DNA of 64,000 bases from Methylobacter tundripaludum (GTDB taxonomy: Bacteria > Pseudomonadota > Gammaproteobacteria > Methylococcales > Methylomonadaceae). This document shows positions 15,847 through 36,430 of this stretch, in pieces (within the stretch, counting starts at the first letter, position 1; the number at the start of each line of letters is the position of its first letter). Where the stretch lies: NCBI RefSeq assembly GCF_002934365.1, contig NZ_PTIY01000001.1, positions 186,001 to 250,000 on the forward strand, written 5' to 3'. Under the pieces are notes generated by a model that did not search any database, was not told where the DNA came from, and worked only from the letters and a program-made list of their open reading frames with translations. Both the position numbers and the translations under genes were made by a program.

Positions 15847-16149
15847 ATGAGTAAATGCAAGTTGATAATAGGTCTTTTATTGGTCATGTTGATTGCCGGT
15901 TGCGCCGGAGGGGCTAAACATGAAAGTACCGGGGAATATATAGATGACGCGGTGCTGACTACCAAGGTTAACACGTCAATATTGGGCGATTCCAGGCTTA
16001 AACTGCTGCAAATCAACGTTGAAACTTTCAAAGGCGTTGTGCAGCTGAGTGGGTTTGTTGATTCCGCTGCCGCCGCCGCCAGAGCGGTGGAACTTGCAAG
16101 AACGGTTAAAGGCGTTAAGTCGGTTAATAACAGCTTAATTGTGAAATAA
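15847..16149 (+). CDS. BON-domain lipoprotein (OsmY-like)
   Basis: This 100-residue protein has a lipoprotein signal ending in the lipobox LIAGC (Cys about residue 19). It then has one BON domain: DDAVLTTKVNTSILGDSRLK, then VVQLSGFVDS and a C-terminal VKSVNNSLIVK. BON domains are thought to bind phospholipid or the envelope. The single-domain form and lipobox predict an outer-membrane-facing periplasmic protein. It lies alone after the CHAD gene. The specific role is unknown. Confidence 0.85.
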   Translation: MSKCKLIIGLLLVMLIAGCAGGAKHESTGEYIDDAVLTTKVNTSILGDSRLKLLQINVETFKGVVQLSGFVDSAAAAARAVELARTVKGVKSVNNSLIVK

Positions 16150-16545: not shown

Positions 16546-16681
16546 ATTGCCTTTTCATTTTGTTAAGTTCCACTGATTATGCAATATTCCAATTAAATTT
16601 ATGTGACAGTTACAAGACAATAAGATGACATTAAAGTTTCAACGCCTCAGCTGAATTCATAAACCTAGAAAAATCATTTCG

Positions 16682-16800
16682 TCCACGAAAAACACCAAAA
16701 TTTCAAAGAGTTATCAAGTCGCGGCTCGTCACCCAAAGGGTGAGCTACTAAATAACTATAGCGTTTCGTTTTGTTTCGTGTCTTTCGTACTTTTCGTGGA
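16682..16800. repeat. CCACGAAA inverted-repeat element (copy A)
   Basis: TCCACGAAAA at 16682 pairs with TTTTCGTGGA ending at 16800, giving a palindromic element of 119 bases. Outside it the sequence AAACTGCGGTTTTTAGG resembles the flank of the related element at 27808-27925. With the element at 16881-17024 it accounts for most of the 476-base gap between the small acidic gene and ureG, in which I see no gene. Confidence 0.7.
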
Positions 16801-16880
16801 TAAACTGCGGTTTTTAGGATAAAGGTAAACTGTACGAAGGAACGGACGATTTTAGCGGTGCGAAATATGTTCGGCGCGCT

Positions 16881-17024
16881 TAAGTAACCGTTCAAAAGTC
16901 TTTTAAACATTTTTTACTCACCACGAAGGACACGAAGTTAACTATTTTTCTTCGTGATCTTCGTGGTAAATAAGGAGACAAGTGGTTTTTTCATTTTGTT
17001 AAAAAACTTTTGGCTACCTACTTA
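16881..17024. mobile_element. MITE-like element, copy B (3' end of ureG)
   Basis: A 144-base element bounded by TA at both ends, with imperfect terminal inverted repeats (TAAGTA, then AAAAGTCTTTTAA near the left end and its complement near the right). Internally CCACGAAGGACACGAAG pairs with CTTCGTGATCTTCGTGG. It is about 93% identical by eye to 31834-31986, in the same orientation. Its right TA falls within the TAA stop codon of ureG. Removing the element would leave TAA intact. No transposase is encoded. The TA ends suggest mobilisation by an IS630/Tc1-type transposase. Confidence 0.75.
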
Positions 17025-17633
17025 ATCCAGCATTCCCGCCTGAATAATAAAATCTTCAACCGCTTTAAGGCCTTCCCGGCTCTTCAAATTGGTAAATACA
17101 AACGGCCGTTCTCCGCGCATCTTGCGCGCATCGCGGTCCATAACCTCCAGAGACGCACCGACATAAGGCGCCAGATCGATCTTGTTGATAACCAGCAAGT
17201 CCGAACGGGTAATTCCGGGGCCGCCTTTGCGCGGTATCTTGTCGCCTGCCGACACATCGATCACGTAAATCGTCAGATCGGCCAGTTCAGGGCTGAAGGT
17301 CGCACTGAGATTATCGCCGCCGCTTTCGACCATGATAAAGTCGAGATTTTCAAACTTCATGCTTAATTCATCGACCGCCGCCAGATTCATCGACGCATCC
17401 TCCCGGATAGCGGTATGCGGGCAGCCGCCGGTCTCCACACCCAAGATGCGTTCTTCCGGCAGCGCCTGGCTGCGGATCAAAAACTGCTGGTCTTCCTTGG
17501 TATAAATGTCATTGGTCACCACGCCGATTTCAAAATTGTCGCGCATTTGCTTGCACAACGCATCGACCAAAGCCGTTTTACCGGAACCAACCGGGCCGCC
17601 GATACCTACTCTTAATATTTGTTTAGCACTCAT
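17022..17633 (-). CDS. ureG: Urease accessory GTPase UreG
   Basis: UreG (203 residues) is the SIMIBI-class GTPase that powers nickel delivery to urease. The P-loop is [15 protein letters not shown]. The nickel-binding CPH motif is [15 protein letters not shown], followed by [18 protein letters not shown] and the base-recognition NKID ([12 protein letters not shown]). Length is normal. It is last gene of the ureD-A-B-C-E-F-G cluster, 8 bases after ureF. Its stop codon overlaps the boundary of the mobile element at 16881-17024. Confidence 0.98.
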
Positions 17634-17641
17634 ATAATCCC

Positions 17642-18316
17642 TCAGGAACGAAATAATCTGGAATACTGCATTTCATGCCGGCTGCTGGCTAAAGCCAAGC
17701 CAAACGCGCTACCGCCGATGTCATGATCGGCAATGCTGAGCGCCTCGTCAGCTAAAGCCGGAATTTTACCGGCCAAATCGGTCAACAACCGTTGCCCGGC
17801 GACTTGTCCCAACGGCACCAGCTTGACCGCGCATAACACCTGGTTCTCCAACCAGCTCCACAAATAACCGATGACTGTTTCGCGTTTGGGAACGCCCCAG
17901 TTCACAGCGGCAAAAGCGAATACCGTAGCCAGCGTGGTTTCGGGTTTGCGTATCCAGGGCTGCATACCGTCAATCACCAATGAATCCAGCAGCCGCGCCA
18001 AGGCTTGGCCGGTGTGCCGGTCTTCGGCCCTTAATTCGGAAGTCTCCCGGCAGGCAATCAGGGTTCCGCTCCAATATTCAACCCGTTCAACATCGCCGCA
18101 TTCCCAGGCGTCGTAAAGCCGCGCCAATATCGGCAGATCGACACGCGCCAAACAAATCGCCATCAAGCCGTTAAGCCATTCGCCGGTATCGCTTGCATTG
18201 CTTATCCAGCCATCGTCGACCGCGCGCTCCAGGCCTTGCGAATAACAGTACATGCCTATCGGCAAGCCGGGGCTGACCAGTTGCAGCAAACGCAATAAGG
18301 CCAGATCAGTGACCAT
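17642..18316 (-). CDS. ureF: Urease accessory protein UreF
   Basis: UreF (224 residues) is the helical scaffold that recruits UreG to the apo-urease/UreD complex. It begins [20 protein letters not shown] with the conserved [10 protein letters not shown] next, and the C-terminal part contains [13 protein letters not shown]. The start at 18316 overlaps the last codons of ureE by 11 bases; upstream in-frame codons would extend it further into ureE and are less likely. Confidence 0.95.
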
Positions 18317-18737
18317 GGCCGTGGTACGCGCCCTGCTCCGGTTCGAAAGGCAACACTTCATGGCTGACCGTCAAGCCCAGCCCTTCCAGCATATGATCCA
18401 GCACGTGATCGGTCAGGAAGCGAAGCTCGCCCGGCAGAATCTGCAACGCGACATGGCGGTTGCCCAAGTGATAACAAGCCTTGGCGAAGTGTAGCGCGTC
18501 ATCGGTGCGCACCACCGATAGCGGCTCCGGCGCCGCATCGACCAGCACCCGGTAACGGTCGGGGCCGGTCAGCACCGAGCCTTTGCGCAGCACTTGGCCG
18601 CGCGGCAAAAACAGCCCGATTTTTGCGCCGCTGTCGGTTTTTAGCAGCAGGCGGCTTTTCTGGCGCGATTCATACGGCAACGTGATCACATCGTCCGGGG
18701 CGGTCTCCAATGGAGCCAGTTCAGTCAATTTCAGCAT
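18306..18737 (-). CDS. ureE: Urease nickel metallochaperone UreE
   Basis: UreE (143 residues) binds nickel and hands it to UreG. It has the N-terminal substrate-like domain (residues 1-70) and the metal-binding domain with AKACYHLGNRHVALQILPGE and DHVLDHMLEGLGL. It ends with a short histidine tail (YHGHGH), shorter than in Klebsiella. The start ATG at 18737 lies just after the ureC stop (TGATTATG), in a T-rich stretch with no clear ribosome-binding site, so translational coupling to ureC is likely. Confidence 0.95.
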   Translation of the reverse strand: MLKLTELAPLETAPDDVITLPYESRQKSRLLLKTDSGAKIGLFLPRGQVLRKGSVLTGPDRYRVLVDAAPEPLSVVRTDDALHFAKACYHLGNRHVALQILPGELRFLTDHVLDHMLEGLGLTVSHEVLPFEPEQGAYHGHGH

Positions 18738-18739
18738 AA

Positions 18740-20443
18740 TCAAAACAAAAAATAACGTTGGGCAAAGGGCAGCACATCGGCCGGTTCGCAAGTCAGCAGC
18801 AAGCCGTCGGCCCTGACCGAATAAGTTTGCGGATCGACTTCGATATGCGGTTGGTAGTGGTTATGGATCAAATCTTTTTTGCCGATGGTTCGTGTGCCTG
18901 CGACTACGCCTATCCTTTTGTTAAGTCCTAAAGTTCTTGGAATATCGGACTCGACCGCGATTTTAGGCAAAAAGAACATCGAAGTCACCGATGCGGTCCT
19001 TCCGAACGCCCCGAACATCGGCCGGTAATGCACCGGTTGCGGCGTCGGAATCGAGGCATTCGGGTCGCCCATCGGCGCGGCGGCAATAAATCCGCCTTTA
19101 AGAATCAGGCTGGGTTTGACCGCGAAAAAAGCCGGGTTCCACAACACCAAATCCGCCAGTTTACCGACTTCGACAGAGCCGACTTCGTGCGCGATGCCGT
19201 GGCTGATGGCCGGATTAATCGTGTACTTGGCGATATAACGCTTGATGCGGAAATTGTCGTTGCGCGGCGAATCCTCGGCCAAGCTGCCGCGCTGCGCCTT
19301 CATTTTATGCGCGGTCTGCCAGGTGCGGATAATCACTTCGCCAACCCGGCCCATCGCCTGCGAATCCGAAGAAATCATCGAAAATGCGCCCAAGTCATGC
19401 AGAATATCCTCGGCGGCGATAGTTTCGCGGCGAATCCGCGATTCGGCAAAAGCCACGTCTTCGGCAATGCTTGGGTCAAGGTGATGGCAAACCATCAGCA
19501 TGTCCAGATGCTCGTCTACGGTATTGATCGTATAAGGCCGGGTCGGATTGGTAGACGACGGCAGCACGTTAGCCTCGCCGCAAGCCCTGATAATATCCGG
19601 CGCATGGCCGCCGCCGGCGCCTTCGGTATGATAAGTATGAATGGTGCGGCCCTTGAACGCGGCAAAAGTGTCCTCGACAAAACCGGATTCGTTCAAGGTA
19701 TCGGTATGAATCGCGACCTGCACATCAAAGCGGTCGGCGACCGAAAGACAGCAATCGATAGCCGCCGGTGTCGTGCCCCAGTCCTCGTGCAGCTTCAAGC
19801 CCATCGCCCCGGCGCGAACCTGTTCTTCCAACGCAATCGGCAAACTGGCGTTGCCCTTGCCGAGCAGTCCAAAATTCATCGGAAACCCGTCCAGCGATTG
19901 CAGCATGCTGTGAATATTCCACGGCCCCGGCGTGCAGGTTGTAGCATTGGTGCCGGTTGCAGGCCCGGTGCCGCCGCCGATCATCGTAGTCACGCCTGAC
20001 ATCAACGCTTCATCGATTTGCTGCGGACAAATGAAATGGATATGCGCGTCGATGCCGCCGGCGGTCAGGATTTGTCCTTCACCGGCGATAATTTCGGTGC
20101 CGGGGCCGATGATTATATCGACGCCCTGTTGCGTATCGGGATTCCCAGCCTTGCCGATTCCGGCAATGCGACCGTTTTTGATGCCGACATCGGCTTTAAT
20201 AATGCCCCAGTGGTCGACGATCAGCGCGTTGGTGATCACCAAATCCATCGCCACGGTGGAATCAACCTGGCTTTGGCCCATGCCGTCGCGAATGACTTTG
20301 CCGCCGCCGAATTTGACCTCGTCGCCGTACACCGTGCGGTCGGCTTCGACTTCTAAAAACAAGCCGCTGTCGCCCAAACGCACCCGGTCGCCGGTGGTCG
20401 GCCCGAACATATCGGCATAAGCTTGCCTGCTGATCCTGCTCAT
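18740..20443 (-). CDS. ureC: Urease alpha subunit
   Basis: This is the catalytic subunit (567 residues) that hydrolyses urea to ammonia and carbamate at a dinuclear nickel site. Motifs present are [14 protein letters not shown] (nickel-binding HxH), [17 protein letters not shown] (carbamylated lysine), [14 protein letters not shown], and the flap [20 protein letters not shown]. All expected catalytic residues appear. It overlaps ureB by four bases. The C-terminus QRYFLF is typical of urease alpha subunits. Confidence 0.98.
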
Positions 20444-20757
20444 AAATTGTCCTCCAATGCGCCCATCACGTCCTGGCGGAAGCCGTAAATCCAGCGTAAT
20501 CCGGCAAAGGCCACCAGCTGTATTTCACGTTGCTGGCCGGGCTCGAAACGCACCGCGGTGCCGGCTGGAATATCCGGCCTGAAGCCGCGCGTTGCCGCAC
20601 GGTCGAACTGCAAAGCCGGATTGGTTTCAAAAAAATGATAATGCGAGCCGACTTGAATCGGCCGGTCGCCGCTGTTCGCAACCACTACGCTAATCGTCGC
20701 GCGGCCTGCGTTCAGTTCGATGTCGCCATCGGCGGGGATGATTTCTCCGGGTATCAT
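20440..20757 (-). CDS. ureB: Urease beta subunit
   Basis: This 105-residue structural subunit begins [19 protein letters not shown] and contains [20 protein letters not shown] and [20 protein letters not shown], all characteristic of UreB. It is separate from UreA, as in most proteobacteria. The stop codon overlaps the ureC start. It lies 18 bases after ureA. Confidence 0.98.
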
Positions 20758-20775
20758 GACTGTGCTCCTACTTTG

Positions 20776-21078
20776 CTATTCGATCGGGTTATGGACCGTG
20801 ACCAGCTTGGTGCCGTCCGGAAAGGTCGCTTCAACCTGCACATCGGGCAGCATTTCGGCGACGCCGTCCATTACATCGTCGCGGTAAAGCAGGGTGCGGC
20901 CGAATTCCATCAGTTCCGCGACTGTGCGGCCGTCGCGAGCGCCTTCCATGATCGCGGCGCTGATAAAAGCCACGGCTTCCGGATAGTTGAGCTTCAGGCC
21001 CCTGGCTTTGCGGCGTTCGGCCAGCAGGCCAGCGGTAAATATCAGCAGTTTGTCTTTTTCGCGTGGTGTTAATTGCAT
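20776..21078 (-). CDS. ureA: Urease gamma subunit
   Basis: This 100-residue subunit starts [20 protein letters not shown], continues [20 protein letters not shown], and ends [14 protein letters not shown], all diagnostic of UreA. The frame is open upstream into the inverted-repeat element, but the ATG at 21078 gives the exact family start. The element at 21121-21314 separates it from ureD, so it may need its own transcription start or read-through across a strong hairpin. Confidence 0.98.
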
Positions 21079-21120
21079 TGTTTTAGTCCAATTTTTATTC
21101 AGATGATTTCCAGTATCGGA

Positions 21121-21314
21121 TTTATTCACCACGAAGACACGAAGAGCACGAAGTTTGCTAGTTCCCAAGCTTGATCGCTCGTCGTTATACACATCTCGAC
21201 GTAGGCCGGAATAAACCCGCCCGGCGACAGCAAGGGTGGAGCGTTTCCGGGCTACATCCTTGGGAACCAGCTAAGTTATTAAATTTTTTTCTTCGTGTCT
21301 TCGTGGTGAATAAA
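21121..21314. repeat. Nested palindromic element between ureD and ureA (copy C)
   Basis: The outer arms at 21121-21144 and 21291-21314 are a perfect 24-base inverted repeat containing CACCACGAAGACACGAAG. Inside are a second pair (GCTAGTTCCCAAG with CTTGGGAACCAGC) and an inner REP-like sequence with GTAGGCCGGAATAA and TTTCCGGGCTAC. The whole 194 bases fill the gap in the urease operon. It shares the CACGAAG ends with the other elements here. Confidence 0.8.
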
Positions 21315-21316
21315 AC

Positions 21317-22138
21317 TCAAGTCGCCCAAATTCGCGGAGCACAGGCTTTGCGTTGTACCGAGTCCGGCCGCACAATCGCCCAAACCTGCTCGAAAAAACC
21401 GCGCAGCCGGTCGCTTCTGTCATCAACAGCTCTACAGACCAACAGTTCATCGATAAGCGTCACGCCGCGGCCTTTGCTCTCGCCGATTAATTGCTGGACT
21501 GCGGCCAGACTTTCAGCTCCGGCAGGGCTGGCAAACAAGGTGCCGCAAGCCGACAAGCCCTGCAATCCCCAACGGGCCGCAAAAGCTTTGGCATCCAGAT
21601 GCAGGCGTTCCAAAAACAAAGGCTGTCCCCGACAATAAACCTGCCAGCTCATATCCGCTAAACCGACATCGAAACTCTCGCCGCAGGCAGGCCTTCCTAA
21701 AGACAGAATTTCCCAGCCGATAAAGCGAGCACCTTGGGCCAATTCGACGTTAACAGCCGATCTTAACTGCGCGCCTTGATAAATAATAGTCTCCTGCGGC
21801 AGCCATTCCAGCGCCGCGCCATCCTCCACCTTGATCGAAACGTTCTGGACGGCCAGCTCGCCGTTGCTGCGATAAAACTTTCCGGCCGCCGGCGTGGTAA
21901 TCAGCGCATGGCTGTGTGGTTCGGCAGTGATGAAAAGATTTAACCGGTCGCCGCCGACAATACCGCCCGGCGGATGCAGGATGTACACATGGCAGACGCC
22001 GCCTTCCGGGTAAAAAGGCCGTTGTACGGTTAGCGGGCCTTGATGACGACGGTGCGCCAGTAGCGTTTTGCCGTGTTTTTGTTCAAAGCCGAGTTCCAGT
22101 TTTGCTTGCCAGCCTTTTATTGATAAATTTGCGTTCAC
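21317..22138 (-). CDS. ureD: Urease accessory protein UreD (UreH)
   Basis: UreD (273 residues) binds the apo-urease and passes nickel into the active site together with UreF and UreG. It has the all-beta UreD pattern: VYILHPPGGIVGGDRLNLFI, then AGKFYRSNGELAVQNVSIKV and ALEWLPQETIIYQGAQLRSA. The start is GTG at 22138. It is the first gene of the urease cluster, and the palindromic element begins directly after its stop codon. Confidence 0.95.
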   Translation of the reverse strand: MNANLSIKGWQAKLELGFEQKHGKTLLAHRRHQGPLTVQRPFYPEGGVCHVYILHPPGGIVGGDRLNLFITAEPHSHALITTPAAGKFYRSNGELAVQNVSIKVEDGAALEWLPQETIIYQGAQLRSAVNVELAQGARFIGWEILSLGRPACGESFDVGLADMSWQVYCRGQPLFLERLHLDAKAFAARWGLQGLSACGTLFASPAGAESLAAVQQLIGESKGRGVTLIDELLVCRAVDDRSDRLRGFFEQVWAIVRPDSVQRKACAPRIWAT

Positions 22139-22182
22139 AGTGTTTTTTCAGTTTGTACGGCGGCATTAATAAAAAGAGACGC

Positions 22183-22201
22183 ACAGCGTACCCTACGCTG
22201 T
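22183..22201. repeat. Short perfect hairpin between DUF2442 gene and ureD
   Basis: ACAGCGTA, a CCC loop and TACGCTGT form an 8-base stem overlapping the end of the DUF2442 gene. No T-run follows on either strand, so it is not a classical terminator. Confidence 0.4.
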
Positions 22202-22453
22202 AGGCTGTGAAACTAAAGGAAAAGTCTCCGGGTGACGAATTGAATCGACATGCAAATCAATATCCAATTCCGGCCAATAAAGATGGTGTGGTTGGGGACG
22301 ATCAACGTGGAAAAGTTCCGCTACCGGCGCTTTACGAAACCACGGAAACTCCAAAAATGAAACGAATAGTTCCTCTTTTTCATCAAGCAGTATCCAGAAA
22401 CCGTGTTTGGTAACGCCGGAAACCTCAACCGGGGAAATGTCTGTGCCAAGCAT
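22193..22453 (-). CDS. DUF2442 family protein
   Basis: This 86-residue small protein has the DUF2442 pattern: a short beta-rich fold with GFWILLDEKEELFVSFLEFP, then WFRKAPVAELFHVDRP and a C-terminal LYWPELDIDLHVDSIRHPE. Its function is unknown. The start overlaps the DUF4160 gene by 29 bases. DUF4160-DUF2442 pairs are widespread and behave like small mobile cassettes, sometimes suspected to be toxin-antitoxin-like; that is not shown here. Confidence 0.85.
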   Translation of the reverse strand: MLGTDISPVEVSGVTKHGFWILLDEKEELFVSFLEFPWFRKAPVAELFHVDRPQPHHLYWPELDIDLHVDSIRHPETFPLVSQPTA

Positions 22454-22664
22454 CTTTAATCTCCTGCTCGTGTAAATTTACCAAATTATTTACTTCCCGT
22501 AGTTCCTGTGCAGATAAACCAAAATTCTGCGCGAGTTCGATAGCGGGTTCCAGCCAGAATTTTGCTTCGCCATCCGCATGATCGACATGAACATGCATTC
22601 GTGGTTCTTCTCTTGAGAAGAAATAAAATCGGTAACCGCGTTCACGAAATATTGTTGGACTCAT
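22425..22664 (-). CDS. DUF4160 family protein
   Basis: This 79-residue protein begins MSPTIFRERGYRFYFFSREE and contains RMHVHVDHADGEAKFWLEP, which is the DUF4160 signature with its conserved His-Val-His. It ends with a helix NNLVNLHEQEIKDAWHRHF. The start at 22664 was chosen as the family start; a TTG six codons upstream is also open. It is co-transcribed with the DUF2442 gene. Function unknown. Confidence 0.85.
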   Translation of the reverse strand: MSPTIFRERGYRFYFFSREEPRMHVHVDHADGEAKFWLEPAIELAQNFGLSAQELREVNNLVNLHEQEIKDAWHRHFPG

Positions 22665-22705
22665 AATCAGGAAAATACTCAACTCAAAAATAATAGTTAT
22701 GTAGC

Positions 22706-23374
22706 CTATTCCACTTCGCTCTGTGTTTTCCTCAATGCAGGCTCACGATTCAATATATGCTCACGACTTCCAAATTGAATTACACCATTTTCAATATGAT
22801 AAAAAAATCTATCAAGGACAATCGGAATTATTTCTTCGCACACGTAAGAAGCCATATTAATGGACTTTTCGGCATCCGCCTTTTTAACAGAAATACCCTG
22901 ATGAACTACTTCATTTCTCAATTTCTGAAGTTCAATCCATTCATTCCAAATTGTCGATTCAGCACAACCGCTACGATTTGTTTTAAAATTTAATTGAGTA
23001 AAATCTTCAAGAATTTGGTAATAAATCTTAGGAATGTTTTCTAGACTTTTTTGTTTAAATGTTTGATCGTAAAGTACATCACCTGCACTATTATCAATAG
23101 CCAGCGAATATAAAATGGGTTTTAGCACTACTAATTTTATTCCTACTTCAATTGAAATGATTGCATGTAGAAAAGCAGCTGTGTGAAATTGACTTTCAAA
23201 AAGGATCTTTGACTCAGATAGATTTTGAAGCGGGGCTTTTACAACTTCAGGACTAATTTCATAAAACTTTCCAACGCCTTCAAAGGTAAATTCATCTTTA
23301 TAACGTTGTTTAAAGTCCTCGTATAATGAGTCCATGCCCTGTTCATATAATGCGTCTGATTCATCGTACGACAT
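22706..23374 (-). CDS. HEPN-like protein of unknown function
   Basis: This 222-residue, mostly helical protein has a clear LRNEVVHQG near residue 165, matching the RxxxxH motif of HEPN ribonuclease-like domains (R-N-x3-H form). Upstream helices (HTAAFLHAIISIEVGIKL) fit the HEPN bundle. The coding sequence is visibly richer in A and T than the flanking urease and urt genes, which suggests recent acquisition. AAAAGG lies about nine bases before the start at 23374. It sits beside the DUF4160/DUF2442 pair and may form one accessory island with them. Whether it has nuclease activity is not known. Confidence 0.6.
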   Translation of the reverse strand: MSYDESDALYEQGMDSLYEDFKQRYKDEFTFEGVGKFYEISPEVVKAPLQNLSESKILFESQFHTAAFLHAIISIEVGIKLVVLKPILYSLAIDNSAGDVLYDQTFKQKSLENIPKIYYQILEDFTQLNFKTNRSGCAESTIWNEWIELQKLRNEVVHQGISVKKADAEKSINMASYVCEEIIPIVLDRFFYHIENGVIQFGSREHILNREPALRKTQSEVE

Positions 23375-23476
23375 ATTAAGATACCTTTTAAATGAATGTA
23401 TTGGGATAAGGAAAAGTCATCAATCGAGAATAGTTTCTCTCAATTCATCCTATCATGCCTTTACATTCGATAACCA

Positions 23477-24259
23477 TCAAACCGTCAAATACCGCTTAAC
23501 CATGTCATCGCTCAATTCATCCATTGCCCCGGCAGCTACGCCCCGGCCTCTGTCCATAATATAAAACCGGTCCGCGACTTTCCGCGCAAACGGCAGTTTT
23601 TGTTCCACCAGCAACACGGTCACGCCCAATTCGTTTTTGATTTTGATAATGCCTTCGCGCACCTCGTCTTTCGCTTCGTCGCCTTGTTTCAGCAACGGCG
23701 TCGTTATGCCTTTGGCACGGTTCAGGCGGATAATCACATCGCCGATTTCGCTGACGATATTCGGCTGTATGCCTTCGGTCGGTTCGTCCAGGATCAGCAG
23801 TTTGGGATTCAGAACCAAGGCCCGGCCAATCGCCAGTTGCTGCTGCTGGCCGCCGGACAAGTCGCCGCCGCGCCGTTTGAGCATTTGTTTCAGCACCGGA
23901 AAAAGCTCATAGATATGTTCCGGGACTTTTTTAATGCCTTGCTTGCGCGCCGCGCGCAGGCCGATTTTCAGGTTTTCCTCGACCGTCAGCAACGGAAAAA
24001 TCTCCCGGCCCTGCGGCACAAAACCGATGCCCAGCTCGGCGCGATGTTCCGGTTTGGCAAGGGTTAAGGCCTCGCCGTTATATTCGATAGCGCCGTCGCG
24101 AACCGCGATCAGCCCCATGATGCTTTTAAGCAGGGTAGTCTTGCCGACGCCGTTGCGGCCCATTAAACACAGGCAGGAACCGGCCGGTAAATCGAGATTC
24201 ACATCCCACAAGGTATGGCTGCCGCCGTAATATTGATTCAATCCGCTAATTTTCAGCAT
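23477..24259 (-). CDS. urtE: Urea ABC transporter ATP-binding protein UrtE
   Basis: This is the second ATPase (260 residues) of the urea importer. Walker A is GRNGVGKTTLLKSIMGL, the signature is LSGGQQQQLAIGRALV and Walker B is LLILDEPTEGIQPNIVSEIG. Between Walker B and the H-loop equivalent (TVLLVEQKLPFARKVAD) there is an extra segment of about 25 residues (around ITTPLLKQGDEAKDEVREGI) that I do not recall in other UrtE proteins. It begins by overlapping the urtD stop by one base (TGATG). It is the last gene of urtABCDE. Confidence 0.94.
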   Translation of the reverse strand: MLKISGLNQYYGGSHTLWDVNLDLPAGSCLCLMGRNGVGKTTLLKSIMGLIAVRDGAIEYNGEALTLAKPEHRAELGIGFVPQGREIFPLLTVEENLKIGLRAARKQGIKKVPEHIYELFPVLKQMLKRRGGDLSGGQQQQLAIGRALVLNPKLLILDEPTEGIQPNIVSEIGDVIIRLNRAKGITTPLLKQGDEAKDEVREGIIKIKNELGVTVLLVEQKLPFARKVADRFYIMDRGRGVAAGAMDELSDDMVKRYLTV

Positions 24260-25038
24260 CAGTCCCCCAAATAAACCTGTATCACGCGTGGATCGTTCTG
24301 CACCTCGTCCATGCTACCTTCGGTCAGCACCGAGCCTTCATGCAGCACCGTCACATGCTTGGCAATCGAGCGGACGAATTCCATATCATGCTCGACCACA
24401 ACAATGGAGCGCTCGCCCTGTAACGATAACAGCAGTTCGGCGGTGCGCTCCACTTCCTGATGGGTCATGCCCGCTATCGGCTCGTCGACCAGCATGACTT
24501 TGGGTTCCTGCATCAGCAACATGCCGATCTCCAGCCATTGTTTCTGCCCGTGCGACAGAATGCCCGCCGGTTGCGACCTCAGTTCAACCAGCCCTATCGT
24601 CTCCAGCACTTGTTCGATACGGTCGCGTTGCGCACCGTTCAACTTGGCGAATAAAGTCGCCCATGCGCCCTTATCGGTCGCTAAAGCCAGTTCCAGGTTT
24701 TCGAATACGCTGAGCATGTCGAACACGCTTGGCTTTTGGAATTTGCGGCAAATGCCCGCCTGGGCGATGGCCGGTTCGTCCATTTGCAGCAGGTCGATGG
24801 TTTGCCCGAAAAACACCGAGCCGGTATCGGGCCGGGTTTTGCCGGTAATCACATCCATCAAGGTGGTTTTACCGGCGCCGTTCGGGCCGATCAAACAGCG
24901 TAATTCCCCTGCATCGATATACAGCGAGAGGTTATTCAAGGCTTTGAAGCCGTCGAAACTGACGCTGACATCTTCAAGATAAAGAATCGGGCCGTGGCTG
25001 ACATCCACTTGGCCCGGCTTAAGCGCTATGCCGTTCAT
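24259..25038 (-). CDS. urtD: Urea ABC transporter ATP-binding protein UrtD
   Basis: This is the first ATPase (259 residues) of the urea importer, of the LivG type. Walker A is GPNGAGKTTLMDVITGKTRP, the branch-specific segment is ICRKFQKPSVFDMLSVFENL, the signature is LSHGQKQWLEIGMLLM and Walker B is VMLVDEPIAGMT. The variant signature LSHGQ (rather than LSGGQ) is typical of UrtD. The start overlaps the urtC stop as ATGA. Confidence 0.96.
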   Translation of the reverse strand: MNGIALKPGQVDVSHGPILYLEDVSVSFDGFKALNNLSLYIDAGELRCLIGPNGAGKTTLMDVITGKTRPDTGSVFFGQTIDLLQMDEPAIAQAGICRKFQKPSVFDMLSVFENLELALATDKGAWATLFAKLNGAQRDRIEQVLETIGLVELRSQPAGILSHGQKQWLEIGMLLMQEPKVMLVDEPIAGMTHQEVERTAELLLSLQGERSIVVVEHDMEFVRSIAKHVTVLHEGSVLTEGSMDEVQNDPRVIQVYLGD

Positions 25039-26117
25039 TGTTTTTGCTCCTGCAAACGACGTTGCCAGAATCCGACCAAGCCGTCAGGCAATAACACGGT
25101 CACCAGAATAAAAGTCGCGCCGAGGAAAAACAGCCAGATTTCCGGCATCCATCCGGTTAGCAAGGTCTTGGCGTAATTGACCAGCACCGCGCCGACGATT
25201 GCGCCGTACAGCGTGCCGCGCCCGCCGATAGCGACCCAGATGACGATTTCCAGCGAGTTCAACGGCGAAAATTCGCTGGGATTGATAATGCCCACTTGCG
25301 GCACATACAAAGCCCCGGCAATTCCGGCCAGCATCGCGGCAAACACGAAAATCCATAATTTGAACATTTCCACGCGATAACCGAGAAAACGCACCCGCAT
25401 TTCCTGGTCGCGAATCGCCGTTACCACCCGGCCCAGTTTGCTGTTGACGATCCAGCGGCTGACCAGGAAGGCCAGCATCAGGATCAGGCCTGAAGCCATC
25501 AACAAGCAGGCGCGCACCGAATCGGACTGGCTGTTAAAACCGAGAATTTCCTTGAAATCGGTCAAGCCGTTGTTGCCGCCAAAACCCATCTCGTTTCTAA
25601 AAAAGGCCAGCAACAGCGCGTAAGTTAAAGCCTGGGTAATAATCGACAGATAAACGCCGGTCACCCGCGAACGGAATGCCAGCCAGCCGAACAAAAAGGC
25701 CAGCACGCCGGGAACCAGAAAAATCATGATCGCGGCAAACCAGAACTGCTCGAAACCGTGCCAGTACCAAGGCAGTTCTTTCCAGTTAAGAAATACCATA
25801 AAATCGGGCAGCAGCGGATCGCCGTAAACGCCGCGGCTACCGATCTGGCGCATTAAATACATGCCCATCGCGTAGCCGCCCAACGCAAAGAAAGCGCCGT
25901 GACCCAAAGCCAGAATGCCGCAATAACCCCAAACCAGATCCAGCGACATGCCCAGCAACGCAAAGGTCAAATATTTTCCCAACAGCGATACCGTGTAAGA
26001 GGAGAAATACAGCGGCGAACCCGGTGCAAATACCAGATTGCATACCGGAACAATCAGGCTGATTGCGGCCAATACGGCCAGCACCGAGAGCGCGGCTTTA
26101 TCGTTTTTTAACAGCAT
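25035..26117 (-). CDS. urtC: Urea ABC transporter permease UrtC
   Basis: A LivM-type permease (360 residues) with about ten membrane spans. Characteristic segments are LDLVWGYCGILALGHGAFFA, the cytoplasmic coupling loop with TAIRDQEMRVRFLGY, and the C-terminal IGGRGTLYGAIVGAVLVNY. The length, the extended periplasmic loop (SRGVYGDPLLPDFMVF) and the location between urtB and urtD identify it as UrtC. It starts 3 bases after the urtB stop. Confidence 0.96.
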   Translation of the reverse strand: MLLKNDKAALSVLAVLAAISLIVPVCNLVFAPGSPLYFSSYTVSLLGKYLTFALLGMSLDLVWGYCGILALGHGAFFALGGYAMGMYLMRQIGSRGVYGDPLLPDFMVFLNWKELPWYWHGFEQFWFAAIMIFLVPGVLAFLFGWLAFRSRVTGVYLSIITQALTYALLLAFFRNEMGFGGNNGLTDFKEILGFNSQSDSVRACLLMASGLILMLAFLVSRWIVNSKLGRVVTAIRDQEMRVRFLGYRVEMFKLWIFVFAAMLAGIAGALYVPQVGIINPSEFSPLNSLEIVIWVAIGGRGTLYGAIVGAVLVNYAKTLLTGWMPEIWLFFLGATFILVTVLLPDGLVGFWQRRLQEQKQ

Positions 26118-26120
26118 CGC

Positions 26121-27767
26121 TTAGCCCTCCACCGCTCGGCCCTGTTGCGGAAACAAGCCGCGCGGACGTTTTTGAATGAATAAAATGATGAACACCAACA
26201 CCAGTATTTTCGCCAATACCGCGCCTGCATAAGGTTCAAGCAATTTATTGGCGATACCCAACGAAAATCCCGCCACCAGCGTGCCCCATAAATTACCGAC
26301 GCCGCCGAATACCACGACCATAAATGAATCGACGATATAAGCCTGCCCCAAATTCGGGCCGACATTGGTAATTTGGCTTAATGCGACTCCGGCGACCCCG
26401 GCGATGCCCGAGCCCAGCCCGAAGGTCAAGGCATCGACCCGGCCGGTCGGAATGCCCATGGCCAAGGCCATCTTGCGGTTCTGCGCAACGGCGCGCACTT
26501 CCAGGCCCAGGCGGGTGCGTTTGAGGATTTGCAGCAACAACACAAACACCAGCAGGCAGAAAATCAATATGTACAAGCGGTTCCAGGTCAGCGACAAAAA
26601 GTCGTTGATTTGCAAGGTGCCGCTCATCCATTCCGGCGTCGCGACACTGCGGTTTAACGGCGAAAATATCGAGCGCACGGCCTGTTGCAGAACCAGGCTG
26701 ACGCCGAAAGTCGCCAACAGCGTTTCCAGAGGGCGGCCGTATAAAAAGCGGATAATGCCGCGCTCGATAATAATCCCGGCCAGCGCCGAAATGATGAACG
26801 CCGCCGGAACCGCAATCGCCAACGACAGCCCCAAATGGTTAGGCATCAGTTGTTGGGTGACATAAGTCGTATAAGCGCCGAGCATCATCAGCTCGCCATG
26901 CGCCATGTTGATCACGCCCATCACGCCGAAAGTAATGGCCAAACCAATCGCGGCCAAGACCAGCACCGCGCCGAGGCTTAAGCCGAAAAACAGGGTTTCG
27001 ATAGCGGCATAGGCTTGCAGCTGTGAATTGATTTTTGACAACGCGGCTTCGGCTTGATTGCGCACATCGCTGTCCGCCTCCAGATAATGGCCGTCGCTAT
27101 CTTTTTCGACCAGTCCGTTTAGCCGGTTAACCACATTCCGGCCGGCTTGGTCCTTCAATAAATCGATTGCCGCCAAGCGCACCCTTTTGTCGGGGCTGTT
27201 TAATTGTTCCAGGCCTAAAATAAGCTTGATCGCATTTTGTACGCGTTCGTCCTGTTCCATGATAAGTTGGCCGCGCAACAACGCCAAACTCTGGTCGTCA
27301 ATGGATTGACCCATTGCGCTGACGGCGGCGAGTCTTACCGCGGCATTGTCGTCATTCAGCTGCAAACGGCCGATTATTTTCCTCAATGAAGTTCGCAGGC
27401 TGTTATTAACGGTGATTTTTTGCGTGGCGGAGCGTTCCACCATGCCCAGATTTTCTCCGCTTTCGGCGTCGGTAAGCTTGTAGTCCGTTTCGACTTCTTC
27501 GCCGATGACCAGTTTCCCATCGGCCTTAAGATTGAATAATCGCCCGTCGAGCAGCGCTTGCAATACGGCAACGGCCTGCGGCTTTTCCACGGCGGCCAGT
27601 TGTTCGATAGCCTGCCCACGCTCCTGCATGGACCCGGCTTTAAGATTCGATAAAGCGGCTGAGAAGGCATCCTCGGCGGCATTTTCCTGACCGATACTCA
27701 AGGTTGGCGACATCAGGATAAATCCCAGCATTACCCGGCAACACCATCTGAAAGAATTCGGTTTCAT
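26121..27767 (-). CDS. urtB: Urea ABC transporter permease UrtB
   Basis: This 548-residue protein has a signal-like N-terminus, then about 230 residues of HEAT-like helical repeats in the periplasm (AIEQLAAVEKPQAVAVLQAL; DNAAVRLAAVSAMGQS). The LivH-type permease domain follows from about residue 265 (LAITFGVMGVINMAHGELMM). The long N-terminal extension is a known feature of proteobacterial UrtB. The start at 27767 (MKPNSFRW) has GGAG seven bases upstream; further upstream codons lie in repeat-rich DNA and are unlikely. Confidence 0.94.
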   Translation of the reverse strand: MKPNSFRWCCRVMLGFILMSPTLSIGQENAAEDAFSAALSNLKAGSMQERGQAIEQLAAVEKPQAVAVLQALLDGRLFNLKADGKLVIGEEVETDYKLTDAESGENLGMVERSATQKITVNNSLRTSLRKIIGRLQLNDDNAAVRLAAVSAMGQSIDDQSLALLRGQLIMEQDERVQNAIKLILGLEQLNSPDKRVRLAAIDLLKDQAGRNVVNRLNGLVEKDSDGHYLEADSDVRNQAEAALSKINSQLQAYAAIETLFFGLSLGAVLVLAAIGLAITFGVMGVINMAHGELMMLGAYTTYVTQQLMPNHLGLSLAIAVPAAFIISALAGIIIERGIIRFLYGRPLETLLATFGVSLVLQQAVRSIFSPLNRSVATPEWMSGTLQINDFLSLTWNRLYILIFCLLVFVLLLQILKRTRLGLEVRAVAQNRKMALAMGIPTGRVDALTFGLGSGIAGVAGVALSQITNVGPNLGQAYIVDSFMVVVFGGVGNLWGTLVAGFSLGIANKLLEPYAGAVLAKILVLVFIILFIQKRPRGLFPQQGRAVEG

Positions 27768-27807
27768 AATACTCCATACTTTAAATAAACCTAAAAACCA
27801 AAGTTTG

Positions 27808-27925
27808 TCCACGAAAGACACGAAATAAATTAGCATGCTGTGTTACACCATTCATCGCTTTGAGCGATGATTTACAACTTTGTAAGTTTTTTAAATGTTT
27901 TCGTGCTTTTTGTGTTTTTCGTGGA
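27808..27925. repeat. CCACGAAA inverted-repeat element between urtA and urtB (copy D)
   Basis: TCCACGAAAGACACGAAA pairs with TTTCGTG and TTTTTCGTGGA at the far end. Inside is a perfect small hairpin CATCGCT-TTG-AGCGATG at 27853-27869. The flank carries CCTAAAAACC, as does copy A at 16682-16800. It lies between urtA and urtB and could act as an attenuator that keeps binding-protein mRNA more abundant. Confidence 0.7.
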
Positions 27926-27947
27926 TCAAATGCTTTTTAATTACCGA

Positions 27948-29246
27948 TCAAAAATTCTGCCCGGAGCACTTCTTGGTTTTGGTGTTGTAATTGCCGCAAC
28001 TGATAGGCGCTGTCCAGTCGGCGATAATCGGTTTGCTTTCCGGCAAAAAGTCGGACCAGGCATCGCCGTCGATCAGCTTGTTGGTTTGCCAAACCGTCTG
28101 CAATTGGCCGTCGTCCTGGATTTCGCCGATTAATACCGGTTTGCTGATGTGATGGTTAGGCAACATTTTCGAGGTGCCGCCGGTCAGGTTCGGAAACTCG
28201 ACGCCGATAATCGCTTTTTGCACCGCGTCAGGATCGGTCGAGCCGGCTTTCTCGACCGCTTTGACCCACATGTTGAAACCGATGTAATGCGCTTCCATCG
28301 GGTCGTTGGTCACGCGTTTCGGGTTTTTGATAAAGTCATGCCATTGGCTGATAAACGCGGCGTTTTTAGTGGTATCGATGCTCATGAAATAGTTCCATGC
28401 GGCCAGATGCCCCACCAACGGCTTGGTGTCCATACCCGACAACTCTTCCTCGCCGACCGAAAAGGCGATGACCGGAATCTGTTCTGCGGAAATGCCCTGA
28501 TTGCCTAGCTCCTTGTAGAACGGGATATTGGCGTCGCCGTTAATGGTTGAAACAACCGCCGTTTTCTTGCCGGCCGAACCGAATTTCTTGATGTCCGCGA
28601 CAATACCCTGCCAATCGGAATGCCCAAACGGCGTGTAATTAATCATGATGTCCTTTTTGGCGACGCCTTTGGAGACAAGGTAGGCTTCAAGGATCTTGTT
28701 GGTGGTGCGCGGATAAACGTAGTCGGTGCCCGCCAGTACCCAACGTTTGACTTTTAAATCGTTCATCAAATAATCGACCGCCGGAATCGCCTGCTGGTTC
28801 GGCGCGGCGCCGGTATAAAACACATTCTTCGACGATTCTTCGCCTTCATACTGCACCGGGTAAAACAGCAGGCCGTTCAGTTCTTCGATGACCGGCAACA
28901 CGGATTTTCTCGATACCGAAGTCCAACAGCCGAAGATCGCGGCCACTTTATCTTTGGTCAGCAATTCGCGCGCTTTTTCGGCAAACAGCGGCCAGTTGGA
29001 AGCCGGATCGACGACCACCGCTTCGAGTTTTTTGCCGAGCAAACCGCCTTTTTTGTTCTGCTCGTCGATCAGCATCAGCATCGTGTCTTTCAGCGTGGTT
29101 TCGCTGATCGCCATGGTGCCGGACAATGAGTGCAGCACACCGACTTTAATCGTGTCTTCGGCGTGTGCAGCACCCGCCGCCAGGGTTAATGCCGCTATCG
29201 CACCGGCGATACCGAGTAAGCGCAGTTTTGAAGATAATTTTTTCAT
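27948..29246 (-). CDS. urtA: Urea ABC transporter substrate-binding protein UrtA
   Basis: This periplasmic urea receptor (432 residues) begins MKKLSSKLRLLGIAGAIAAL, with a signal peptide cleaved near AAHAED. Receptor motifs are VGVLHSLSGTMAISETTLKD, GCWTSVSRKSVLPVIEELNG and FYPVQYEGEESSKNVFYTGA. It ends YNTKTKKCSGQNF. The start at 29246 was chosen at the signal-peptide methionine; upstream in-frame codons would add a charged leader. It lies 130 bases after the porin gene and is followed by copy D of the repeat before urtB. Confidence 0.96.
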   Translation of the reverse strand: MKKLSSKLRLLGIAGAIAALTLAAGAAHAEDTIKVGVLHSLSGTMAISETTLKDTMLMLIDEQNKKGGLLGKKLEAVVVDPASNWPLFAEKARELLTKDKVAAIFGCWTSVSRKSVLPVIEELNGLLFYPVQYEGEESSKNVFYTGAAPNQQAIPAVDYLMNDLKVKRWVLAGTDYVYPRTTNKILEAYLVSKGVAKKDIMINYTPFGHSDWQGIVADIKKFGSAGKKTAVVSTINGDANIPFYKELGNQGISAEQIPVIAFSVGEEELSGMDTKPLVGHLAAWNYFMSIDTTKNAAFISQWHDFIKNPKRVTNDPMEAHYIGFNMWVKAVEKAGSTDPDAVQKAIIGVEFPNLTGGTSKMLPNHHISKPVLIGEIQDDGQLQTVWQTNKLIDGDAWSDFLPESKPIIADWTAPISCGNYNTKTKKCSGQNF

Positions 29247-29377
29247 ATTAATAAATCTCAAATAGTTAAAGAAAGGTGGCCTAAAGGCTAAAATTCTGGG
29301 CCTTTCATCTTTTGCCTTTTCATCCATCAGCCAAAATCCGTGACATCTGTGTTCTATTTTCTAGCGGCTAAATAGAT

Positions 29378-30610
29378 TTATATCTGCCACTGAAAGCCGA
29401 GTTTGACGGCATTGCTGTGTTCGCCTGTAGCCGTCGACGTGTAATTCAGGCCTTTGGTCATAAGATCGCCGTATTCCCAGCTCAAGGACACGCGCGCGTT
29501 ATGGCCGTCGATCACGTAGTTCACGCCGCCTTCGTAGGAATTACGGTTGGAACTGCCGCCAGGCAGGACGTTCACATAACGTAGATACGGCTGGACTTGG
29601 CCGATGCCGATTTTTTGCGGGAACAAGTACATTCCGCTGACATCATAGGCGTTGCCTTCGAACATCGAAAAACCGCCGCCCGCATTGCGCGAGGCCTGGC
29701 TGTAGCCGTTGGAAATGCCGTAATTTTTGTATTCGCCGTTTACCGTCACCACGCCGCTGTTGGGCAGCACTTTTTCCATCAGCACGTCGACTGCGGTGCC
29801 TCGGAAGTCGCCATGATCCAAAGCGGTACCCGCGCCGTCTTCCTGATACTGGTTGGACACGGCGACGGTCAGGATGTCGCCGCCTTTGCCGTAGTAAGTG
29901 CCGGAGGTGTAATAGCCTGGATTCTTCTCGACATCCCAGAAGTTGTAGGCAAAGCGCTGGCTGTACAGAATATTGTCGTCAATATTCGCGCCGCCTCTTA
30001 AGCCGCGGAAAAAGCCGACGGCATATTGCAGGCGGCCGTCAAACGCCGCACCCCAAAAGGTCGCTCCGTCGTCACGGCCAAAAGAACCAGCCGAAGTGCC
30101 GTCCGACTTGATCGTCAAATTGTAATCGGCCGGCTCGAACGGCGTGCCGGAACTGAAAATATTGTATATCGCGCTGTAAAACGGACCGTTCATTTCCCGG
30201 CGTTCGGCAGGAACCAGCATGCGGCCTACCCAGAGGTTCGCCATCGGGACGTACTCAAACTTGCCGATCGCATCCAATACCCGCACTTCGCCGCCATTGC
30301 TACAGGTTTGGCAATCGGTATTGAACTCCACCTTCAAATATTTGTGGATTTGCCCGTTGAGGTACAGACGGATATTGTCCAGATTAAAGTCGTTGCTCCA
30401 CTTGTTGCCGCCAGCGCCGGCACCGCTTTCGGCAGCCTGAAAGCTGGTGCGTAAACCCGCACCGATGCTGACCCATTTGGTGTCGTCAATTTTGAAAGTT
30501 GCGCCGGCTTGCGAAGCCGGGACATAGCCGACCGCCAGCGTTAACAGGCTTAATGCCGGAAGAAGTTGCTTGCTTCGTATTCCGGCCGTTGTTTTTGTAG
30601 AATCACTCAT
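29378..30610 (-). CDS. Outer-membrane porin, probable urea/amide channel
   Basis: This 410-residue protein has an N-terminal signal (cleavage near SQAGATFKID). The remainder is a typical 16-strand-like porin pattern with alternating aromatic and small residues, ending in the outer-membrane signature NAVKLGFQWQI. Two cysteines (CQTCSNGG) lie in one loop. It resembles the OprO/OprP-like porins that accompany urea or amide transporters. As the first gene ahead of urtABCDE on the same strand it most likely lets urea or short amides cross the outer membrane. Substrate is inferred from position. Confidence 0.8.
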   Translation of the reverse strand: MSDSTKTTAGIRSKQLLPALSLLTLAVGYVPASQAGATFKIDDTKWVSIGAGLRTSFQAAESGAGAGGNKWSNDFNLDNIRLYLNGQIHKYLKVEFNTDCQTCSNGGEVRVLDAIGKFEYVPMANLWVGRMLVPAERREMNGPFYSAIYNIFSSGTPFEPADYNLTIKSDGTSAGSFGRDDGATFWGAAFDGRLQYAVGFFRGLRGGANIDDNILYSQRFAYNFWDVEKNPGYYTSGTYYGKGGDILTVAVSNQYQEDGAGTALDHGDFRGTAVDVLMEKVLPNSGVVTVNGEYKNYGISNGYSQASRNAGGGFSMFEGNAYDVSGMYLFPQKIGIGQVQPYLRYVNVLPGGSSNRNSYEGGVNYVIDGHNARVSLSWEYGDLMTKGLNYTSTATGEHSNAVKLGFQWQI

Positions 30611-30647
30611 GTCAGGTTCCCCAGAATTTAAAAGGTGATTTGATATT

Positions 30648-30668
30648 GCATCCGGGTTATCCGGATGC
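30648..30668. repeat. Hairpin upstream of the porin start
   Basis: GCATCCGG, a five-base loop and CCGGATGC form a perfect 8-base stem about 40 bases ahead of the porin start codon. It may lie in the 5' leader. No function can be assigned. Confidence 0.4.
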
Positions 30669-30718
30669 AGCCAGGAAGTTGGCTGGATTCATTATTTTGC
30701 TCGGGGGAAATTTGCACA

Positions 30719-30752
30719 ATGCGTCATCTGACTCATCAGTCAAATGACGCAT
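30719..30752. promoter_or_regulatory. Nested palindrome in the porin/lipoprotein divergent region
   Basis: ATGCGTCAT (30719-30727) pairs with ATGACGCAT (30744-30752) and, inside it, TGACT pairs with AGTCA around a CATC loop. Only one position in the 15-base arm is mismatched. It lies between the divergent porin and lipoprotein genes, so an operator for a dimeric regulator is possible. Confidence 0.5.
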
Positions 30753-30812
30753 ATCCATCAACCGGCAACTCGTCTACAGTTGAGGAACCTGTCTCACACC
30801 ATCCGGAGTCGC

Positions 30813-31553
30813 ATGAATAAGCTGATACAAGGCCCTGTAGGGAGCCTGCTGTCCAAATCTATCGCAATGGCCTGGTTATTAAGCGCCTGCGCACCGGGCC
30901 TGGAAAAAAAGCCGATACAGCTCGACACCGCATCAATTAAGCGGATTGAATTCAAGATCGGTACGATCAAGCAACCTTCGTTGAAATCGACATTGGCTGG
31001 GCGGGATGTGGCCGCCCGGATTGGCAACAATCTGGCCGGCTGGGGTTATCCGGTCGGGGCTAAAGACAATCAGGCTTTCAGCCATAGCTTAACCGCTGAA
31101 ATCGGCTTGATTGAGCACAGCGAAACGCCGCCCGGATTTTCATTTTCTTCCGGGAATTCCGATCCGAGGGCCCTCGATTTTCAAAAAGCCAAAGTGCTGC
31201 CGATCGGCTGCGAGCTGGCCTCTATCGCACAGCCGACCCAGACGAGCTATCTGCATATGGACTTTGTTGCCAGCAATGCGGCCAGCGAAGCGCAGTTGGT
31301 CGATCACATCAGCACCGTCTGTTTTAATCTGTTGAGCGAGCTTAACTGGCCGGATAAAACGCAAAGCGAGCCGTCTTCAAGTTTTAAGCCAAGCTGGATA
31401 CCGGAGGTGCGCATCGAAACCGTCACCAGACCGGAAGAAGCCGTCAAAGCCGATGAACCGGGCGTGGAAAAGGAAAACGAAGGCCGTAAACAGATCATCA
31501 TTCACAATCAGGGATCGCCGGTGATTTTAAAATTCGGCCATGAAAGGCTATAA
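30813..31553 (+). CDS. Putative lipoprotein of unknown function
   Basis: A 246-residue protein whose N-terminus MNKLIQGPVGSLLSKSIAMA ends in a lipobox-like LLSAC, so it is probably anchored in the outer membrane. The body has IEFKIGTIKQPSLKSTLAGR and a conserved-looking VARIGNNL-type helix, but I do not recognise the family. The C-terminal part is acidic, then ends IIHNQGSPVILKFGHERL. The start at 30813 has GGAG six bases upstream. It is divergent from the porin-urt operon and could be part of the urea module by position only. Confidence 0.65.
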   Translation: MNKLIQGPVGSLLSKSIAMAWLLSACAPGLEKKPIQLDTASIKRIEFKIGTIKQPSLKSTLAGRDVAARIGNNLAGWGYPVGAKDNQAFSHSLTAEIGLIEHSETPPGFSFSSGNSDPRALDFQKAKVLPIGCELASIAQPTQTSYLHMDFVASNAASEAQLVDHISTVCFNLLSELNWPDKTQSEPSSSFKPSWIPEVRIETVTRPEEAVKADEPGVEKENEGRKQIIIHNQGSPVILKFGHERL

Positions 31554-31607
31554 GCGCCTGATATAAGCTGCTGACTTGTATGTAAGCCTGGAGTGCAGGC
31601 TCGACCT

Positions 31608-31632
31608 GGTGTGCAAGCAGAGCTTGCACACC
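31608..31632. repeat. Perfect 11-base hairpin after the lipoprotein gene
   Basis: GGTGTGCAAGC and GCTTGCACACC flank a three-base loop. A-residues, not T, follow on the plus strand, so it is not a standard terminator. The remaining bases of the 432-base gap up to 31985 hold only the MITE and no recognisable gene. Confidence 0.5.
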
Positions 31633-31833
31633 AAAAAACCGGAAAACTTTAGCTCGATTACTTATTGGGCGTAATTGAGGCTAACCGCACCACTTTAGTT
31701 CAATGCTTTTATAGATAGCTTGCTGTTTAGCGCATAGGCTTTGCTAATGAGCTTTGGTGTAGTTATTGCTTAATCTAAAAGCCGCAGTTTTTAGATTCAA
31801 GAGGTAGTGATTGAACATAGGTAGTGAACAGGT

Positions 31834-31986
31834 TAAGTAATCGTTCAAAAGTCTTTTAACATTTTTTACTCACCACGAAGAGCACGAAGGACACGAAGTT
31901 GACTATTTTCTTCGTGATCTTCGTGGTAAATAAGGAGACAAATGGTTTTTTTCATTTTGTTAAAAAACTTTTTAGCTATCTACTTA
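31834..31986. mobile_element. MITE-like element, copy E (at the NCS1-kinase start)
   Basis: This 153-base element matches 16881-17024 over its whole length and in the same orientation. It carries one extra 9-base CACGAAG unit in its left arm (CCACGAAG, AGCACGAAG, GACACGAAG). Both ends are TA. The final A at 31986 is the A of a presumed ATG start codon (TACTT-ATG-GCT). The element contains AAGGAG and an ATG at 31942 that opens a 19-codon frame ending in TAA at 31999-32001. Confidence 0.75.
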
Positions 31987-36304: not shown

Positions 36305-36430
36305 AGTTAAAGGCCATCATGTTTTTTTAGCATCGTGAGCGAGCCGCCGGGCTGTTTGGTTGATAGCGGACAATGCGCTAAAAAATGCTAGAATCACCGT
36401 TTTTGCGCAATCCGAGAACGTCTCTTGTCC

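What the first reader, a model, noticed from the sequence alone, without database searches (positions are those of the whole stretch)
16881..31986. Urea uptake-and-urease module bracketed by two direct copies of a MITE-like element
Two elements of 144 and 153 bases, about 93% identical by eye and in the same orientation, lie at 16881-17024 and 31834-31986. Between them sit all of ureD-A-B-C-E-F-G, urtA-E, the porin, a lipoprotein and a small accessory island. Direct repeats about 15 kb apart could recombine to delete, circularise or amplify the module. This offers a mechanism for gain and loss of urea use between strains.
Basis: partly seen in the sequence, partly recalled or inferred. Interest (0 to 1): 0.8.

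Follow-up and report, generated by a model that had tools for sequence, protein, structure and literature searches.

The report
Two IS630-type MITEs near urease module
Two copies of a small mobile-DNA remnant do lie on either side of a methane-eating bacterium's urea-use genes, but comparison with related genomes suggests that they are not the edges of the acquired block and probably did not cause its gain or loss.

Summary
Copies at 16881-17024 and 31834-31986 are direct repeats, 88% identical over 155 gapped columns and 96% at ungapped columns. Each has inverted ends, TA at both ends and an internal CACGAAG hairpin. They belong to a MITE family of Methylobacter and relatives. An 1143-bp IS630-type element with similar ends and a DDE_3 transposase occurs in another genus of the family. 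Four copies were found in the window genome, and no relative of that transposase.

The gain-and-loss interpretation fails on the comparative test. In 7 of 18 relatives' regions BON lies directly beside Lon. Against that empty site the acquired block is about 16.65-36.36 kb, so the right MITE lies 4.4 kb inside it and the hybrid kinase-regulator pair lies beyond that MITE. G012, the relative with the highest-scoring UreC, has the block at the same site with neither element. No MITE scar was seen in the intervals that could be read. In G011 different genes lie between BON and Lon, so exchange through conserved flanks is the likelier route (inferred). MITE-mediated deletion remains possible but unsupported.

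The parts
16881..17024 (+). MITE copy 1 (TAAGTA...CTACTTA), with an internal CACGAAG hairpin; its terminal TTA (17022-17024) is the ureG stop codon
31834..31986 (+). MITE copy 2, same orientation, between orf30744 and the hybrid kinase gene
16652..36355 (.). Acquired or variable block relative to relatives with BON directly beside Lon (boundaries approximate: left homology ends at up to 16651, right resumes at 36355-36367 depending on the relative)
17022..22138 (-). ureG-F-E-C-B-A-D
23477..29327 (-). urtE-D-C-B-A urea ABC transporter
   Evidence: UrtE and UrtA by NCBIfam; D, C, B named by position
29378..30610 (-). porin-like protein (NF040900 match below its cut-off; no Pfam hit)
30744..31553 (+). 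269-aa protein of unknown family, conserved beside the module in G012, G004 and G018
32326..36304 (+). hybrid sensor kinase and LuxR-type response regulator; inside the acquired block but outside the MITE pair
15847..16149 (+). BON-domain gene, left flank of the variable site
36425..38818 (+). Lon-family protease, right flank of the variable site

Best explanation
The two repeats are separate insertions of a non-autonomous IS630-type MITE (TA at the ends, about 28-bp TIRs) into intergenic DNA of a urea-use block that was already in place or arrived by another route. Shown: the element family, its ends, an IS630-type partner in another genus, the absence of either element from G012's copy of the block, and block boundaries that do not match the elements. 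Inferred: the MITEs entered after the G000 and G012 lineages split (loss in G012 is not excluded), and the block is exchanged by homologous recombination through the conserved BON and Lon flanks, a site that holds other genes in at least one relative.
For: TIR and copy survey. Element in G120 (L207: 1143 bp, similar ends, DDE_3 1.8e-31). No relative of that transposase in G000 at E<=0.001; 12 of 23 genus genomes have some match, several weak or fragmentary. BON directly beside Lon in 7 of 18 regions (G019, G021, G008, G006, G002, G016, G014). Flank homology stops at about 16651 and resumes at about 36355. G012 has CHAD-BON-ureG...orf30744 on C45 and HK-RR-Lon on C30; the contig ends share an exact 141-bp overlap and the C30 end carries a copy of the orf30744 3' end; no TIR end on the stretches read. 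Other genes between BON and Lon in G011 (about 11.4 kb).
Against: TA as a true target duplication was not proved with a filled/empty pair of the same site. G012's two contigs are joined by inference, and the overlap looks like repeat sequence. G012 is another species (CHAD 82% identical), so loss of the MITEs there is possible; it has a degenerate related end elsewhere (C33, L124). The route by which the block moves was not observed. G015 (72% complete) has HK-RR on a contig that starts inside HK, and no UreC hit, so a leftover HK-RR state cannot be excluded there.
Confidence: 0.83

Rival explanations
1. The two MITEs act as direct repeats that let RecA delete, circularise or amplify the roughly 15-kb segment, causing gain and loss of urea use.
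For: Same orientation, about 15 kb apart, exact blocks of 36, 26 and 23 bp. Urease is patchy in the genus: UreC in 4 of 23 genomes including the window's own. Two MAG contigs (L149, L165) share 729 identical bases on one side of a related MITE but differ on the other, as recombination at a MITE or an assembly misjoin would give.
Against: Block edges do not match the elements. Deletion would leave HK-RR behind; this was not seen, though G015 cannot be judged. G012 has the block without elements. No scar in the BON-Lon intervals that could be read. The repeats are short and gapped.
Confidence: 0.08
2. The pair works as a compound transposon that moved the urea block.
For: Two similar TIR elements flank the segment.
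Against: No detected relative of the partner transposase in the genome (other transposases not searched); G012 has the block at the same place with no elements; HK-RR outside the pair belongs to the same acquired block.
Confidence: 0.02
3. The elements matter mainly as RNA or regulatory hairpins, copy 1 at the 3' end of ureG and copy 2 upstream of the sensor kinase.
For: Both fold far better than shuffles (z -4.5 and -5.5, DNA parameters, copy 2 folded 3 bases short). Copy 1 contains the ureG stop codon, copy 2 lies just before the kinase frame, and copies 3 and 4 lie in gaps between genes that look like tonB and exbB (named by eye).
Against: The scans found no terminator- or promoter-like site within either element (one of each lies just outside copy 1). 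G012 lacks both elements at a conserved block.
Confidence: 0.15

Closest known systems
IS630/Tc1-mariner-derived bacterial MITEs (such as Correia, RUP, Nezha; names recalled, Correia also mentioned in PMC4853749 passages)
   Same: Short, non-coding, TIRs, TA at the ends, multi-copy, ends shared with an IS630-type DDE transposase element
   Different: Own TIR sequence (no comparison with those families was run); interior varies by genome and in some holds another dispersed hairpin repeat
MITEs of Candidatus Thiomargarita nelsonii (PMC4853749, passages seen)
   Same: Inverted-repeat elements without a transposase; one kind folds into large hairpins with TATA ends
   Different: No sequence comparison was made; the paper reports no likely parental IS in ISfinder, whereas an IS630-type partner is seen here
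Chromosomal integration hotspots between conserved genes (concept recalled)
   Same: Same flanks (BON, Lon), empty or with different genes in different species
   Different: No search for integrases or tRNA targets was made; only two cargo types were seen with both flanks (the urea block in G000 and, across two contigs, G012; another block in G011)

Membership tests
IS630-type MITE | Terminal inverted repeats | tested here: met
   imperfect in the window copies
IS630-type MITE | No transposase inside, under about 300 bp | tested here: met
   144 and 153 bp; no ORF of 90 aa or more lies within either
IS630-type MITE | TA target duplication | tested here: inconclusive
   TA at both ends of both window copies and of 20 of 21 paired copies; a few others end in TTT or TTG; no filled/empty pair of one site compared
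IS630-type MITE | Parent IS with same ends | tested here: met
   L207 in G120: ends TAAGTAGGTGATCAAAAGTCTTTTAA / TAAGTATTAGTTCAAAAGTAATTTAA around a DDE_3 protein; similar, not identical, ends; not found in the own genome
Compound transposon or excisable module | Mobile segment ends at the repeats | tested here: not met
   Block edges about 16652 and 36355, not 16881 and 31986
Compound transposon or excisable module | Scar or junction with a single element in relatives | tested here: not met
   One search scanned 18 CHAD-region stretches: hits only in L140 and L141, both away from the BON-Lon interval. That interval was seen whole in 9 of 18 (7 empty, G011 filled, G005 rearranged). Long reads not available

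The most novel reading that the evidence does not exclude
In Methylococcales the IS630-type MITE is a modular shell: similar TIRs carry unrelated, independently dispersed hairpin repeats in different genomes (CACGAAG in the window's genus; CATTCCGGC...GCCGGAATG in G100 and G075; GTTCGTCC...GGTTAAGCC-type in G073 and G107). The shell may thus spread, or serve as a safe landing place for, REP-like hairpins, and the urea-flanking pair would be one example.
Probability: 0.3. Interest if true: 0.5.

Novelty: new member of a known kind. Interest (0 to 1): 0.3.

Why it matters
It removes a tempting but unsupported mechanism for gain and loss of urea use in methanotrophs and points to a better one to test: a BON-Lon chromosomal site that is empty or holds urea or other genes depending on species. 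It also names the repeat as an IS630-type MITE family of Methylobacter and relatives.

Tried and rejected
Excision at the MITE pair: compared with empty sites and G012 and rejected as the cause of the presence/absence pattern seen. Parent transposase beside twelve TIR hits in the genus: none recognised, judged by eye from the three longest frames of each, without a profile search. Paired TIRs at IS-like distance in nine genomes: none noticed by eye in a capped list. Named-genome copies: 21 of 22 were short pairs, 17 of them 118 bp. The 20 loci, plus L188, were scanned for paired ends and nine of them were read for ORFs by eye; a transposase was recognised only in L207 (G120). Circular permutation to explain G001's order: rejected by eye, since HK-RR there lies left of ureG in the other orientation, so an inversion is needed. 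Literature searches: no listed title or abstract start names this MITE or ties a MITE to urease. One search returned 0 papers; one search listed 12 of 216, none about bacterial repeats by title. Only listings were seen, except passages of PMC12810054 and PMC4853749.

Full report
OBSERVATION. The two repeats exist at the stated places, in direct orientation. They align over their whole length: 137 matches, 5 mismatches and 13 gap columns in 155 columns, with exact blocks up to 36 bp. The match is far beyond chance (E 1.5e-48 within the genome). The CACGAAG hairpin core alone is a common dispersed repeat: one search lists 50 matches in the genome, most covering only the core. The ends are specific: the motif GTTCAAAAGTCTTTTAA occurs exactly 4 times in the own genome, at the two window copies and at C11 and C30, plus one two-mismatch hit on C24 that I did not examine. 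More diverged copies could be missed. The C11 and C30 copies sit near contig ends, in similar gaps between genes that look by eye like tonB and exbB.

WHAT THE ELEMENT IS. Both copies begin TAAGTA and end CTACTTA and have about 28-bp imperfect inverted ends. An exact pattern scan of named genomes gave 21 stretches (22 matches), all titled Methylococcaceae, Methylococcales or Methylobacter MAGs; records very near the window's genome may be left out there. 21 of the 22 matches had a second end within 300 bp; 17 of these are 118 bp long with another core, and 3 have the CACGAAG word. CACGAAG-core versions occur in G001, G002 and G022. In a family sample, 15 of 151 genomes, the own one included, had an exact stricter end. 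In G120, of the same family but another genus, two such ends lie 1143 bp apart around a 334-aa protein with DDE_3 and HTH domains, which I read as an IS630-type transposase (family name from own knowledge). The window genome has no match to it at E<=0.001; 12 of 23 genus genomes do, several of them weak or fragmentary. The window copies are therefore MITEs, probably immobile at present.

IS IT THE EDGE OF THE MODULE? UreC is in 4 of 23 genus genomes: G000, G001, G004, G012. G018, 70% complete, has urtA, porin, orf30744 and HK-RR on one contig but no UreC hit. Of the 22 other genus genomes I fetched the CHAD region of 18, and G012's separately; longer stretches around CHAD were not fetched for G003, G015 and G017. 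In 7 of 18 BON is followed directly by Lon. In G011 the two are about 11.4 kb apart with other genes between. In G005 they lie close together in opposite orientation. In the other 9, BON and Lon were not both seen in the stretch. Compared with the empty site, homology on the left stops near 16651 and on the right resumes near 36355-36367. The block thus includes the kinase-regulator pair beyond the right MITE. G012 carries CHAD-BON-ureG...orf30744 on C45 and HK-RR-Lon on C30. The contig ends overlap by 141 identical bases, and the C30 end carries a copy of the orf30744 3' end just inside, consistent with one continuous block interrupted by a repeat. Neither stretch has a TIR end even at 4 substitutions. 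G012 does have a degenerate related end elsewhere (C33, L124). In G001, G004 and G018 the module appears to lie elsewhere, since CHAD is on another contig with other neighbours or at a contig end. Only weak 4-substitution matches were found on the G001 and G004 stretches and none on G018. One G004 match falls between orf30744 and HK; without a partner end or hairpin core I read it as chance.

MECHANISM. Most likely the urea block was gained or exchanged at the BON-Lon site by recombination in conserved flanks, and the MITEs inserted independently. Supporting this, the site carries an unrelated block in G011 (amine oxidase, TPP enzyme, M61 peptidase, serine dehydratase), and in G009, G010 and G013 a porin/ABC-uptake/LysR block lies beside BON, its right flank not seen (Pfam was run on 4 proteins of G011 and 5 of G009 only, G010 and G013 were judged by eye). 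This route is inference.

RECOMBINATION. Nothing rules out rare deletion between the copies. Two MAG contigs with a related MITE share 729 identical bases on one side and differ on the other, which could be recombination or misassembly. G015's HK-RR contig starts inside HK, so a deleted state there cannot be judged.

SIDE RESULT. TIR shells in other genera hold other hairpin cores. Two of these cores were checked: the G100 core has 29 matches in G100 and 18 in G000, the G073 core 56 in G073 and 66 in G000. None of the G000 matches listed lies at the four MITE copies, so they are dispersed repeats in their own right. One G107 copy (L195) is a short shell with little inside, so internal deletion rather than capture is also possible.

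LITERATURE. [quoted passage not shown] its main text has no hit for 'transpos' or 'MITE'.

Noticed in passing
16150-36424 and L127-L144: The BON-Lon interval is variable across the genus: empty in 7 of 18 relatives' regions, urea block in G000 and G012, another block in G011; an uptake block lies beside BON in G009, G010 and G013.
   Followed up: partly
L189, L190, L194, L196, L197, L201-L203: IS630-type MITE shells with similar TIRs contain different dispersed hairpin repeats as cores.
   Followed up: partly
32002-32326: The kinase reading frame is conserved upstream of the window's first ATG/GTG/TTG in five genomes. The window copy has 108 codons without a standard start, and G001 and G018 also lack one upstream of the conserved RDYN/REYN motif; G012 and G004 have a GTG there. 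A non-standard start is possible.
   Followed up: partly
22706-23374: 222-aa ORF with no Pfam or NCBIfam hit, in a low-GC stretch (38%) between ureD and urtE; in G012 the two genes are only about 43 bp apart.
   Followed up: partly
20008-20294 (+): Rfam 5_ureB_sRNA match (118 bits) antisense to ureC; it may only reflect conserved urease coding sequence.
   Followed up: no
21130-21305: Further CACGAAG repeat arms around the ureA start and ureA-ureD gap, inside the urease operon; similar core-only matches lie between ureA and ureD in G001.
   Followed up: no
L149 and L165: Identical 729 bp on one side of a 118-bp MITE but different sequence on the other: recombination at a MITE or misassembly.
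   Followed up: no
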